Source: Microcystis wesenbergii FACHB-1317
GTDB lineage: Bacteria > Cyanobacteriota > Cyanobacteriia > Cyanobacteriales > Microcystaceae
Direction of reading: 5' to 3'
DNA: 33,246 nt
NCBI RefSeq assembly: GCF_014696875.1
Contig: NZ_JACJQV010000199.1
Span: forward strand, 1 to 33,246
Part shown: positions 4,406 through 32,789 of the stretch, one piece after another
How the letters are laid out: the number at the start of each line of letters is the position of its first letter
Numbering within the stretch: the first letter of the stretch is position 1
Notes under the pieces: model-generated
Database searches by the model: none
Told to the model about the DNA's origin: nothing
What the model saw: only the letters and a program-made list of their open reading frames with translations
Program-made: the position numbers and the translations under genes

Positions 4406-4475
4406 TTATCAGTGATCAGTTATCAGTGATCAGTTATCAGTGATCAGTTATCAGTGATCAGTTATCAGTGATCAG
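4406..4475. repeat. tandem repeat, five perfect copies of a 14-bp unit
   Basis: The unit TTATCAGTGATCAG is repeated five times without change. It is two heptamers, TTATCAG and TGATCAG, related to the TTATCAG heptamer arrays at 9754, 16999 and 23561. It lies just upstream of the start of the 3529-4359 gene and before the group II intron region. Confidence 0.9.
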
Positions 4476-4505
4476 TTCACTGAGAAAACTCCCCACACCT
4501 CCCTG

Positions 4506-4535
4506 CCCCCCCGATGTCGGGAGGGTTGGGGGGGC
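4506..4535. repeat. C/G-rich inverted repeat, dispersed hairpin element
   Basis: CCCCCCCGA-TG-TCGGGAGGG forms a 9-bp stem with one mismatch and a two-base loop, followed by a second G-run. An almost identical element lies at 18973-19000, where the stem is perfect. CACACC-type tracts flank both copies. The group II intron starts 3' of this copy, at 4542. Confidence 0.75.
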
Positions 4536-4541
4536 ACACCC

Positions 4542-5326
4542 GTTACAGTAGAGCAGGAAGTCGCCTTCCCACCCCCTGCTTCAAAACCGGACTTACGACT
4601 TTCGCCGTATCCGGCTCCTGAGTAACTAGGCTACTGTCATTAGTAGAATAATAATGGGAATTATTATTTCCTTGTCTATTCAACTCTCTTGGCTGTATCC
4701 CCACCAGACAAGATTGTTGGTTTTAGGGCGTATATGACCGTTGATTGTTGCTTAGACTTCCTAGTTACCCGTCCTTTGTCAGCATATCTTTGATATTACT
4801 CAAAGCCTTGGCTTTTAAGGACATCCTCTCCCTCTATTGACTTGCGGATGGTTTCCTACTGCCCCGAACGGGCAGAGTCAATCAGGGTTACTTCGTTCCC
4901 TATAACCATTGGTTGAACCGTATTTGATGATACTGTCCACAACAGAGTAACGGGAATGCCTTACTGATAGTGGTATGAGCTATCAGCCCCAACTCTGTTA
5001 ACTTTTGTTTCGAGCCTGTCAGCCTTTTGGCTCGTGGGTGTTGACGATGGTTAATTCGTATCTTCGCCCCAGGGCTATCGATATGTTCTGGCTCAACGGG
5101 TTTCTGATTTAGGCTATCAGATACCGCTTTTTTTCCTCGCTCACTACCTCAGATGTACCAAGTCTAAAGCAGCAGGAAATGCCGTCACTCTAGGCATCTA
5201 GAGGACAGGACTAAGGTTATTACTAACCCGCACCTGTAGGGTTATAAAGTTATCAAGGTACTACATTTACCAAGCGGCTAATCCTCTAAACGTCTTACTG
5301 TCTAGTTTCTAGCCAACGAATCGCAC
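4542..5326 (-). ncRNA. group II intron without an internal ORF
   Basis: Read on the minus strand, the element starts with GTGCGATTCG, a typical group II 5' end, and ends with CTACTGTAAC, a typical 3' end with a candidate bulged branch A eight bases from the end. Just before this is domain V at 4584-4617: 34 nt, AGC triad, GAAA tetraloop, 8-bp lower stem, two-base bulge and 6-bp upper stem. Domain VI follows at 4542-4583 with an AGCAGG/CCTGCT stem. The 785-nt length matches the RNA domains alone, and no reverse transcriptase/maturase ORF is present, so splicing or movement would need a maturase encoded elsewhere. A possible EBS1 (ACACCC, plus positions 5036-5041, about 285 nt from the 5' end) can pair with GGGTGT just upstream of the intron, offset one base from the junction. 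Confidence 0.85.
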
Positions 5327-5470
5327 CACACCCTACACCCTACACCCCACACCCCACACCCCACACTGTTCACCGAATAGGTACTGATACTATTTGGGAA
5401 CGATTGTCAAACAATTGTAAAACTTCGTTATATTTAAGGAACATTTGAGAGACTAAGGAGCAGCGGAGTT

Positions 5471-9753: not shown

Positions 9754-9786
9754 ACTGATAACTGATAACTGATAACTGATAACTGA
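9754..9786. repeat. heptamer tandem repeat (ACTGATA)n
   Basis: Four full copies of ACTGATA plus ACTGA. It is the reverse complement of the TATCAGT/TTATCAG heptamer seen at 16999 and 23561. It lies directly after the 3' end of apcF. It resembles the short tandemly repeated (STRR) sequences known from cyanobacteria. Confidence 0.9.
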
Positions 9787-16998: not shown

Positions 16999-17044
16999 TC
17001 AGTTATCAGTTATCAGTTATCAGTTATCAGTTATCAGTTATCAG
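16999..17044. repeat. heptamer tandem repeat (TCAGTTA)n
   Basis: Six full copies of TCAGTTA and a partial seventh, directly upstream of the histidine kinase start codon and in the gap to the divergent psb32-like gene. Same heptamer family as the arrays at 4406, 9754 and 23561. Confidence 0.9.
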
Positions 17045-23560: not shown

Positions 23561-23760
23561 GTTATCAGTTATCAGTTATCAGTTATCAGTTATCAGTTGT
23601 AAGTTTTAAGTTATCAGTTATCAGATGTAAGTTATCAGATGTAAGTTTTAAGTTAATTAGTTATTTAGTTATCAGATGTAAGTTAATTAGTTATTTAGTT
23701 ATTTATTTATTTATTTTCATCTTTATCCCTGTTCACTGATTACTGATTACTGTTCACTGA
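23561..23760. repeat. degenerate heptamer array (GTTATCA and variants)
   Basis: Five exact GTTATCA copies (23561-23595), then variants in phase such as GTTGTAA, GTTTTAA and GATGTAA mixed with further GTTATCA, then GTTAATTA/GTTATTTA units and TTTA runs, ending in TGTTCACTGATTACTGATTACTG. The array fills the gap between the fructosamine-kinase-like gene and the M16 peptidase stop codon. Confidence 0.9.
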
Positions 23761-25232: not shown

Positions 25233-25349
25233 AGTTCAATTTCCCCACTTCCCCACTTCCCCACTTCCCACTTCCCCCCTTCCCACTTCCCCCCTTCCCA
25301 CTTCCCCCCTTGCCTCTGAGAAAAAAAAATGCTACGATCAAACTAAATC

Positions 25350-25530
25350 GGGCTTCTACGTTGGTGACTGCCTTTCAAGTTTTTTGATCTATGCTTGATT
25401 GTGATAAGGGAGCAAATAACCAATTCGTGTGGTAGTAAACCGAGCTTGTACTCGGAAACAGAAACGCGGAATATAAGTTCCCACCTGGTTAACCCAGGTC
25501 ATAAACTTAGGTAAAACGGCGTAGCGGTCT
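25350..25530 (+). ncRNA. ssrS: 6S RNA candidate
   Basis: About 180 nt with the 6S RNA layout, inferred from pairing by eye. The closing stem joins CTACGTTG (25356-25363) and CGGCGTAG (25517-25524), 8 bp. Inside, AAGTTT pairs with AAACTT and GCCT with AGGT. Next, GGGAGC pairs with GTTCCC around the bubble, the 3' side holds a small hairpin CCTGG-TTAAC-CCAGG, and the apical part holds CCGAG-CTTGTA-CTCGG. 6S RNA imitates an open promoter and binds the housekeeping RNA polymerase. Plus-strand reading is assumed from the fold and the direction of the next gene; the strand is not proven. The rest of the 681-bp gap has no gene. Confidence 0.6.
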
Positions 25531-25553
25531 TTGCAAGTTTTTCGAGCAGATCA

Positions 25554-30860: not shown

Positions 30861-30932
30861 GCGGGTATAGTTCAGTGGTAGAACGTCACCTTCCCAAGGT
30901 GAATGTCGCGCGTTCGAGTCGCGTTACCCGCT
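30861..30932 (+). tRNA. tRNA-Gly (anticodon CCC)
   Basis: Full cloverleaf. Acceptor GCGGGTA/TACCCGC, D stem GTTC/GAAC, anticodon stem TCACC/GGTGA with loop TTCCCAA (anticodon CCC at 30893-30895), T stem GCGCG/CGCGT with loop TTCGAGT. The CCA end is not encoded. It reads GGG codons. It lies 10 bp past the stop codon of the acyl-CoA-dehydrogenase-like gene, so it may be processed from a shared transcript. Confidence 0.95.
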
Positions 30933-31374: not shown

Positions 31375-31843
31375 GGCTCTTTTGGTTTTTGTGTGTTAAT
31401 TTTTGTTATGAATTAAAGCAAGCAAACAGCTTAAGTCGAAGATGTTCAAAATTGGTAAATCCATAACTCATTCTTTTAATAAGCTTTATTTTGGTATTCA
31501 TTCCCTCAATTAATCCGTTGGTTGTCTGATTTTCAAAGTAATTACAAATACCAGGCCAATGCTTCTGGATCATGCTGGCACTACTTTGATATAATATCCC
31601 GCCTATTCTTATCCATTTTTCCAATTTTCTCTCAGCACCTCTGAAGGTTCTACTACTTTGATAAATTTGTCTAATTTCTTCTTTCATTTCCCAGGCTATT
31701 CCCAAGCATGGATGTTCTTTCAGGATAACTTCTAGTTGTTGTTTTTGCTCGTCCTTTAAGTCCTCTTTATTCTTCCATAATAAATGAGGTAATCCTTTTT
31801 CATGCACCCCTATTAACTTTCTCAATTTATTAAGCTCGTCATT
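31375..31843 (-). pseudogene. ISL3-family transposase, 3' remnant
   Basis: The minus-strand frame ending at 31406 carries the C-terminal part of an ISL3-type transposase: KWIRIGGILYQSSASMIQKHW, then NYFENQTTNGLIEGMNTKIKLIKRMSYGFTNFEHLRLKLF, which is the conserved end with the catalytic Glu in GLIEGMNTK. The N-terminal two thirds are missing: at 31844 the frame runs into the IS5-type element. Beyond the stop, GGCTCTTTTGGTTTTTGTGTG at 31375-31395 fits an ISL3 terminal repeat, so the true end of the element is probably 31375. The protein start upstream of 31843 comes from the IS5 sequence and is artificial. Confidence 0.75.
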
Positions 31844-31844
31844 A

Positions 31845-32789
31845 GATCTCTTGCAAAAGTAATCAAGATATATATTTTTGTCGGTAACGAAGTTCGTAAT
31901 TGTAGATACCAGCAATCAAATTCAATCTCAGACCAAATCGCCGTCTGCGATTTCTGTATCTTGATGAAAGTATCCGAAATATTTTGAGACGACGATGAAT
32001 ATGTTCTATAACTATGCGCCGTTGTGATAACTGACGATTGTCTTTTTTTTGCTCTTTACTTAGTTTTTCTTTTTTCTTTTTTTTATGAGGAATTTGACTG
32101 TTTTGATGGATTTTCTGAATTCCTTGATAGCCTTTATACCCTAATATTTCTATTTCCTTATTTAACCTTATTTTGCTTTCTTTCCACAGTCGAAAATCAT
32201 GGACTCTTCCTTTCTCACAACGGACACAGATTACCTGTTCGCTTTTTTGGTCGCAACGCGCTCGCTGCGCGAGATCGGCAACGACTTGCGACTTTAATGT
32301 GTGGTATCCCTGCTTGCCACTATAGTATGATTTCTGTTTTTTTTTGGGTCTTTCTATCTCCTGTTCCAACCCATCTACCACCACTACTTCTATTTCGCTA
32401 TTGCTTTCTACTAGGGCTTTTTTCCCCGGTAGATTAAACAGACCTGATTTGCTCAGAATATTCTCCACTTTCCTAACAATTCTATACGCCGTTGATTCGT
32501 TCACACCCCAACTATTTCCCCGATGAAAATAGGTGCGATATTCTCGCCAATACTCTGGGGCTATTAGTAGTTGGTTTTCTGTACTCAATTTGCTCGGTCT
32601 GCCTGTCTTTTTTTGCCATACTTTTTCTGCCGCTAGGACTGTTACCATATCCTTAAATGTCTCTGGATACAAGACCCACAGGCGTTTAAACTCTGTTGAC
32701 TTTAAAGTTTTTACTTGTTCGTAAGTCATCTTTCACTCTTAACTCTTGAACTATTTTATCTTATTTTGTCTAGACTTATGCAAGAGATC
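31845..32789 (-). mobile_element. IS5-type insertion sequence
   Basis: Ends are inverted repeats GATCTCTTGCAAAAGT (left) and the reverse complement of ACTTATGCAAGAGATC (right), 15 of 16 matching, with a TA at each edge (31843-31844 and 32790-32791) that may be the target duplication. The element is 945 bp and carries one transposase gene (31863-32729). It has inserted into or beside the ISL3 remnant on one side and a plus-strand gene fragment on the other. Confidence 0.8.
31863..32729 (-). CDS. IS5-family transposase, probably inactive
   Basis: 288 residues. Helix-turn-helix region WGVNESTAYRIVRKVE (74-89), then the DDE core: Asp119 in VVVVDGLEQE, the second acidic position in ILGYKGYQGI, and Glu242 in RRIVIEHIHRRLKIFRIL. 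The second catalytic Asp, normally in a (A/G)DKGYQG motif, is Tyr198 (codon TAT in place of GAT), so catalysis should fail. Residues about 154-161 (AQRARCDQ) come from a GC-rich palindromic stretch in an AT-rich gene and look inserted in frame. The reading frame is otherwise open. Confidence 0.8.
   Translation of the reverse strand: MTYEQVKTLKSTEFKRLWVLYPETFKDMVTVLAAEKVWQKKTGRPSKLSTENQLLIAPEYWREYRTYFHRGNSWGVNESTAYRIVRKVENILSKSGLFNLPGKKALVESNSEIEVVVVDGLEQEIERPKKKQKSYYSGKQGYHTLKSQVVADLAQRARCDQKSEQVICVRCEKGRVHDFRLWKESKIRLNKEIEILGYKGYQGIQKIHQNSQIPHKKKKKEKLSKEQKKDNRQLSQRRIVIEHIHRRLKIFRILSSRYRNRRRRFGLRLNLIAGIYNYELRYRQKYIS

What the first reader, a model, noticed from the sequence alone, without database searches (positions are those of the whole stretch)
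4542..5326. ORF-less group II intron in an intergenic position
Minus-strand 5' end GTGCGATTCG, a full domain V with AGC triad and GAAA tetraloop, domain VI with a candidate branch A, and a TAAC 3' end are all visible within 785 nt, yet there is no maturase gene. The ORF track has nothing here, so automatic gene calling would miss it. It must depend on a maturase in trans or be a fossil ribozyme.
Basis: partly seen in the sequence, partly recalled or inferred. Interest (0 to 1): 0.7.

Follow-up and report, generated by a model that had tools for sequence, protein, structure and literature searches.

The report
Maturase-less intron in heptamer repeats
The finding is a real, complete, maturase-less group II intron whose relatives in several cyanobacteria sit at the unit boundaries of 7-base tandem repeats, with guide loops that match the repeat each one occupies, so it looks like a mobile catalytic RNA that has specialised on simple repeats as its landing sites.

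Summary
Confirmed. Window 5326-4542 (minus) is an intact 785-nt group II intron without a maturase (RF00029, 55.0 bits), with a covarying fold. It splits a (GGGTGTA/G)n heptamer array at a unit boundary; 0 of 8 other genomes with the same upstream flank carry it there. A complete genome of the same genus (G008) has 36 hits with the same domain V score. Of 34 5' junctions read, 32 follow GGGTGTG and 2 follow another copy's 3' end with zero gap; 36 of 36 3' junctions have G at +1. ORF-less relatives in other genera (65-71% identical) sit in other heptamers (GGGAATA; AGTAATG type), and their EBS1/EBS2 loops change to match. Occupied G008 sites have G at -1, are free at -8, and favour A at -15 (30 of 32; empty sites 17 of 62; weaker against one site per array, 10 of 20), a base that T. 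elongatus maturases select. Best reading: a retrohoming intron that reads two consecutive heptamers, is mobilised in trans, and leaves its target intact so that copies can stack. Splicing, mobility and the driver maturase are untested.

The parts
4542..5326 (-). ORF-less group II intron, 785 nt, 5' GTGCG ... GTAAC 3'
   Evidence: RF00029 hit; same unit and ends in G008 copies
4583..4618 (-). domain V with AGC and GAAA loop
4545..4579 (-). domain VI; bulged A778 at window 4549 is the candidate branch point
5036..5041 (-). EBS2 ACACCC (intron 286-291), pairs with GGGTGT at -14 to -9
   Evidence: pairing and comparison with relatives
4972..4977 (-). EBS1 CATACC (intron 350-355), loop of a covarying hairpin, pairs with GGTGTG at -6 to -1 with one G-U
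4935..4935 (-). candidate EBS3 (C392), unpaired in the consensus, would pair with G at +1
   Evidence: C where +1 is G, T where +1 is A; but 10 alignment columns show that pattern, so chosen by position only
5327..5361 (-). 5' exon: five heptamer units (GGGTGTG/A), holding IBS2 and IBS1, A at -15
4535..4541 (-). 3' exon: next heptamer unit GGGTGTG, +1 = G

Best explanation
This is one copy of a mobile, ORF-less group II intron lineage of cyanobacteria that targets heptamer tandem repeats. EBS2 and EBS1 each read one repeat unit (-14 to -9 and -6 to -1), and reverse splicing places the RNA at a unit boundary, where +1 probably pairs with EBS3. A maturase/reverse transcriptase made elsewhere in the cell supports splicing and mobility; its preference for A at -15 may be visible in the occupied sites. 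The arrays are mostly intergenic and numerous, so insertions are cheap and sites plentiful. Because the 5' exon keeps IBS1 and IBS2 and the intron itself starts with G, the upstream junction stays a complete pairing target, so another copy can insert directly in front of the first. Shown: anatomy, exact target, match of guide loops to target across genera, polymorphic absence, zero-gap tandems. Inferred: splicing, retrohoming as the route, action in trans, the tandem mechanism.
For: Exact 785-nt unit and domain V. In G008 32 of 34 5' junctions at GGGTGTG, 2 of 34 at another copy's 3' end, 36 of 36 3' junctions with G at +1; target sites are 62 of 770,000 strand positions in 385 kb sampled from that genome. 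19 of 30 uninterrupted copies identical, so the spread is recent. EBS1 pairs 6 of 6 with its own exon in window, G122, G138, G110a and G110b (with 1, 0, 0, 0 and 2 G-U), and 3-5 of 6 with exons of another repeat type; EBS2 6 of 6 in the window, 5 of 6 in the others. G138's 5' exon was read after its loop had been aligned and fits, though it shares genus and loop with G122. 0 of 8 genomes with the upstream flank have the intron there; G003 has an uninterrupted array with both flanks. G at -1 in 32 of 32 against 62 G and 32 A in empty sites (p 2.7e-5), -8 unconstrained (p 0.43), A at -15 in 30 of 32 against 17 of 62 (p 4.6e-10); A-15 is selected by T. elongatus maturases (PMC2882425, passages). 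G008 has an intact maturase, L154, in the clade of maturases from introns with similar ribozymes.
Against: No RNA evidence. In the window's genome the only maturase-domain hit is of the other clade and at a contig end, and the window copy is the only one found there. L154's ribozyme is only 60-66% like this one, in stretches. The -15 bias was noticed after the fact; with similar flanks merged it is 21 of 23, against 17 of 62 (p 1.4e-7) but against one site per array 10 of 20 only (p 0.005). Some G008 copies share flanks (34 junctions in 24 clusters), so not all insertions are independent. A 5' fragment in G002 and a second one in G122 show no best period of 7.
Confidence: 0.78

Rival explanations
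1. The window copy is an immobile leftover: the lineage was mobile elsewhere, but here the driver maturase is missing, and the copy at most splices.
For: Single copy in the window's genome; only maturase hit there belongs to another clade; truncated remnants in G005, G002 and G010.
Against: The copy is full length with all named parts intact and about 99% like the G008 copies. The assembly has 248 contigs, and repeated introns lie at contig ends, so a maturase could be missing from it. This rival concerns the window copy and is compatible with the main reading of the lineage.
Confidence: 0.35
2. Copies spread as DNA, by recombination between arrays or on a transposable element that contains the heptamers, and not by retrohoming.
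For: 6 of 34 G008 junctions share one flank family and 4 share another; part of the copies sit in similar repeat flanks.
Against: Most flanks differ (24 clusters of 34); every copy has the same exact ends; base rules at -1 and loop-target matches across genera follow RNA pairing.
Confidence: 0.1
3. Zero-gap tandems arose by recombination or by insertion of a concatemer, not by re-insertion at the 5' junction.
For: Only two in G008 plus one remnant in G203; unequal crossing-over between nearby copies could give tandems.
Against: Crossing-over between copies in arrays would leave heptamers between them, as seen for the pair 21 bases apart (L131); the zero-gap joints are exact intron ends.
Confidence: 0.35
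4. The intron splices and moves without any maturase.
For: No ORF; an ORF-less bacterial intron that splices without a maturase in the genome is described (PMC3919590, passages).
Against: Spread needs reverse transcription, and the A at -15 bias lies outside the EBS2 pairing and resembles maturase recognition.
Confidence: 0.08

Closest known systems
ORF-less TeI3 introns of Thermosynechococcus elongatus (PMC2882425; passages read)
   Same: Cyanobacterial ORF-less group II introns, moved in trans by maturases of other introns, split into families with different EBS sequences; A-15 selected by the TeI4h maturase and, with A-14, in TeI3c/4c.
   Different: Their target families are intron ORFs, an IS element, intergenic sites and genes; heptamer arrays and head-to-tail stacks are not mentioned in the passages read ('tandem' occurs 0 times). 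No TeI sequence was compared here.
Maturase-bearing introns of the same order (L170-L186, L230) and L154 of G008
   Same: Similar 5' ends and stretches of ribozyme; intact RVT_N, RVT_1, GIIM and HNH domains in L154 and L230.
   Different: They carry the maturase; the 16 examined have no heptad period in the 5' exon (2-6 of 14 matches at shift 7).
Reverse transcriptases of M. aeruginosa NIES-843 (PMC8934634; passages read)
   Same: Seven group II RTs, six 97-99% alike and one at 51% to them, as in G008: L157-L160 97-100% alike and L154 at 51%. Fits G008 being that strain, whose length I recall.
   Different: An RT survey cannot see introns without an RT; the ORF-less copies are not mentioned in the passages read.
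Heptamer repeats of cyanobacteria (PMC4692102, PMC4679880; passages read)
   Same: Abundant intergenic 7-bp repeats, also noted for M. aeruginosa NIES-843.
   Different: No link to group II introns in the passages; 'intron' occurs once in the first, in a eukaryotic context, and 0 times in the second.

Membership tests
group II intron | domain V and VI with branch A | tested here: met
   RF00029 55.0 bits over 1-77 of 77; bulged A778
group II intron | 5' GUGYG and 3' AY ends (consensus recalled) | tested here: met
   GTGCG at 5326, AC at 4543-4542; same ends in G008 copies
group II intron | domain I fold with EBS1-IBS1 and EBS2-IBS2 | tested here: met
group II intron | splicing through a lariat | not testable with these tools
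   needs RNA
subgroup IIB | EBS3-IBS3 pairing in the coordination loop (recalled) | tested here: inconclusive
   C392 changes with +1, but 10 columns show that pattern
subgroup IIC | insertion after terminators, no EBS2 (recalled) | tested here: not met
   an EBS2-IBS2 pairing of 6 of 6; site is a repeat array
retrohoming (mobile) group II intron | same exact insertion at many copies of one target, with empty sites | tested here: met
   G008 junctions, empty site in G003; the reaction itself not tested
T. elongatus TeI3-type ORF-less introns | mobilised by a partner maturase in trans | tested here: inconclusive
   L154 is a candidate in G008; no partner of that clade found in the window's genome

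The most novel reading that the evidence does not exclude
A lineage of group II introns has evolved to use simple heptamer repeats as its standing target. The 7-bp period puts two guide loops in register, and the repeat's one variable base is read three ways: fixed as G at -1 by EBS1, ignored at -8, and preferred as A at -15 by a protein supplied in trans. Insertion does not use up the site, so copies can stack head to tail, and the lineage has re-targeted as the prevailing repeat differs between genera.
Probability: 0.5. Interest if true: 0.78.

Novelty: new variant of a known kind. Interest (0 to 1): 0.65.

Why it matters
A mobile intron normally has few sites, and each insertion occupies one. 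A version that lands in abundant, mostly intergenic 7-mers and leaves the guide-paired part of its site in place gives a testable route to high copy number without a gene for its own spread. It would give the heptamer repeats of cyanobacteria a use as landing tracks for a mobile RNA, and the genera with different repeats offer a natural series of matched guide and target changes.

Tried and rejected
EBS1 was first sought at the loop of intron 284-291, whose pairing with -7 to -2 looked good; comparison with relatives showed that this loop is EBS2 and that EBS1 is the next hairpin. A better-scoring match at intron 595-603 was dropped because it lies outside domain I. A phage or plasmid home: no phage match, only partial matches (6-12% of the query) on 9 plasmid records, no viral contig with a 22-nt pattern. 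The genome-contig scan with a junction pattern found nothing; records near the window's genome may be left out there, so it says little.

No anchored EBS1 test was made on maturase-bearing relatives; an unanchored scan of 14 gave clear exon pairing in only some, so the covariation claim rests on the ORF-less lineage. For the heptad check, 19 loci were at hand (L170-L186, L154, L230); 16 with a located 5' end were used, L180, L181 and L182 left out, and some 3' ends (L154, L230) are approximate. In one search, L222 (67% to G110a, same intron as L230) is a close relative that carries a maturase and sits in no heptamer.

The genome searches scored only part of their first-look candidates (5 or 2 per genome; 150 of 335 in G008), so copy numbers and the 15 of 388, 4 of 386 and 9 of 388 genomes with a match are lower bounds. 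After joining flanks, an ORF of 120 aa or more spanned the insertion point in 5 of 30 copies, not followed up; so 25 of 30 are intergenic by that test. The target-pattern counts came with a backward control nearly as high, because the repeat also holds the backward pattern; they are not used as evidence. The maturase tree has 10 open forks of 21 and does not settle the driver.

Literature: ten searches; one search listed 15 of 94 papers and 10 of 20. No listed title or passage seen links group II introns with bacterial heptamer repeats. A Microcystis mobilome paper (PMC11448079, passages) names group II intron RTs only in passing. The NIES-843 genome paper and a 2008 survey of ORF-less introns are not held, so these copies may already be catalogued.

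Full report
The intron is real. cmscan finds RF00029 at 4619-4542 minus, 55.0 bits with a cut-off of 40. The unit from GTGCGATTCG (5326) to GTAAC (4542) has domain V with AGC and GAAA, and domain VI with a bulged A eight nucleotides from the end. No ORF of 80 aa or more lies in it. A consensus fold of seven ORF-less sequences has 182 pairs, 67 with a two-sided change.

Copies. A search of 98 related genomes found the unit, 1-785, in G008, a one-contig genome of the same genus. G008 is 5,842,795 bases long, which I recall as M. aeruginosa NIES-843; its maturases (four 97-100% alike, one at 51% to them) fit the published account of that strain (six at 97-99%, a seventh at 51%; PMC8934634, passages). 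G008 has 46 domain V hits, 36 with the window's score (150 of 335 candidates scored). I fetched the surroundings of these 36. 30 are uninterrupted and full length at 97.8-99.1% to the window, 8 distinct sequences, 19 identical. Four more have both ends but are split by inserts, and two have no 5' end in the fetched DNA.

Target. Of 34 5' junctions, 32 follow GGGTGTG and 2 follow another copy's CTGTAAC with no base between. Of 36 3' junctions, 36 have G at +1; 26 start GGGTGTG or GGGTGTA, 2 start with the next intron and 8 with other sequence. In 385 kb sampled from G008 the two-unit target is 62 of 770,000 strand positions. In the window the intron parts five units at 5361-5327 from another at 4541-4535. 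The upstream flank was found in 8 other genomes; none has the intron there. In 5 of the 8 the downstream flank was found too, and G003 shows an uninterrupted array between them. Partial copies occur in G005, G002 and G010.

Guide loops. ACACCC (intron 286-291) pairs with GGGTGT at -14 to -9. CATACC (350-355), the loop of a covarying hairpin, pairs with GGTGTG at -6 to -1 with one G-U. Searches of 388, 386 and 388 genomes found ORF-less relatives 65-71% identical in other genera. G122 lies in GGGAATA-GGGAATA|GGGAATA, G138 after GGGAATA three times; G110 has three copies at AGTAATA-AGTAACG|AGCAATG, AGTAATA-AGTGATG|AG and AGTAATG-AGTAATG|AGTAATG; a 5' fragment in G160 follows AGTAATG-AGTAATA-AGTAATA. 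At the same columns EBS1 reads TATTCC in G122 and G138 and CGTTAC in G110a, 6 of 6 with its own exon in each; across repeat types it pairs 3-5 of 6. EBS2 pairs 5 of 6 in these. G138's exon was seen only after its loop was aligned, but it shares genus and loop with G122. Of 16 maturase-bearing relatives, all have 2-6 of 14 matches at shift 7 in the 5' exon; seven full-length ORF-less copies have 7-14; of four 5' fragments, two show no best period of 7.

The variable base. The repeat varies A/G at its seventh base. In occupied G008 sites it is G at -1 in 32 of 32 (empty sites 62 G, 32 A; p 2.7e-5), free at -8 (8 A, 24 G; empty 11 A, 51 G; p 0.43) and A at -15 in 30 of 32 (empty 17 of 62; p 4.6e-10). 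With similar flanks merged it is 21 of 23 (p 1.4e-7 against all empty sites, p 0.005 against one site per array, 10 of 20). -1 is paired by EBS1, -8 lies between the pairings, -15 just outside EBS2. A-15 is selected by the TeI4h maturase, and with A-14 when the TeI4c maturase drives the ORF-less TeI3c (PMC2882425, passages). The preference was noticed after the fact.

Helper protein. G008 has five maturase-domain hits: four of a multi-copy Microcystis clade and L154, 586 aa with RVT_N, RVT_1, GIIM and HNH, among the maturases of introns with similar ribozymes. L154's ribozyme matches only in stretches of 60-66%. In the window's genome the one hit is at a contig end and of the multi-copy clade. 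The driver is therefore open.

Mechanism, inferred. The RNA splices out of transcripts, reverse-splices into heptamer arrays through EBS2, EBS1 and probably EBS3, and is copied by a maturase acting in trans. Insertion leaves IBS2 and IBS1 in place and puts a G at +1, so the upstream junction can be used again. The zero-gap pairs in L052 (6655, 7439) and L133 (1785, 2570) and a remnant in G203 fit this; another pair lies 21 bases, three units, apart. In 25 of 30 copies no ORF of 120 aa or more spans the joined site.

Novelty. Trans-driven ORF-less introns with changed EBS are known from T. elongatus, and heptamer repeats are known from cyanobacteria. I found no paper that joins the two in ten searches of the held library, with the limits told under Tried and rejected. 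I rate it a new variant of a known kind.

Noticed in passing
window 4416-4464, 9759-9786, 16999-17040, 23565-23592: Runs of the heptamer TAACTGA (or its complement), a repeat described in cyanobacteria and Beggiatoaceae (PMC4679880, passages); the first run lies just downstream of the intron.
   Followed up: partly
window 4498-4535: G+C-rich inverted repeat (CCCCCCC...GGGGGGG) overlapping the end of the intron's 3' exon unit and absent from the G003 allele.
   Followed up: no
L112 and L166 (G098), flanks of several G008 copies: A repeated element with AGGGTTTGC / GCAAACCCT ends that itself contains GGGTGTG units lies at the orthologous place in G098; similar flanks surround some G008 copies.
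   Followed up: partly
L113 (G009) and L114 (G007): At the orthologous place the array consists of another heptamer, GGGAAAT type, so the repeat itself differs between strains.
   Followed up: no
L052, L132, L142, L145 (G008): Intron copies split by inserts of 87 nt to about 2.2 kb; the one in L052 holds a 557-aa ORF that looks like a transposase by eye.
   Followed up: no
window 31406-32729: Two overlapping ORFs on the minus strand that look like a transposase in two frames, by eye.
   Followed up: no
G000:C75:36897-37400 (L013): A reverse transcriptase hit just over the Pfam cut-off with a 650-codon frame and no maturase domain hit.
   Followed up: no
window 25347-25534 and 30861-30932: 6S RNA (82.2 bits) and tRNA-Gly(CCC).
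   Followed up: no
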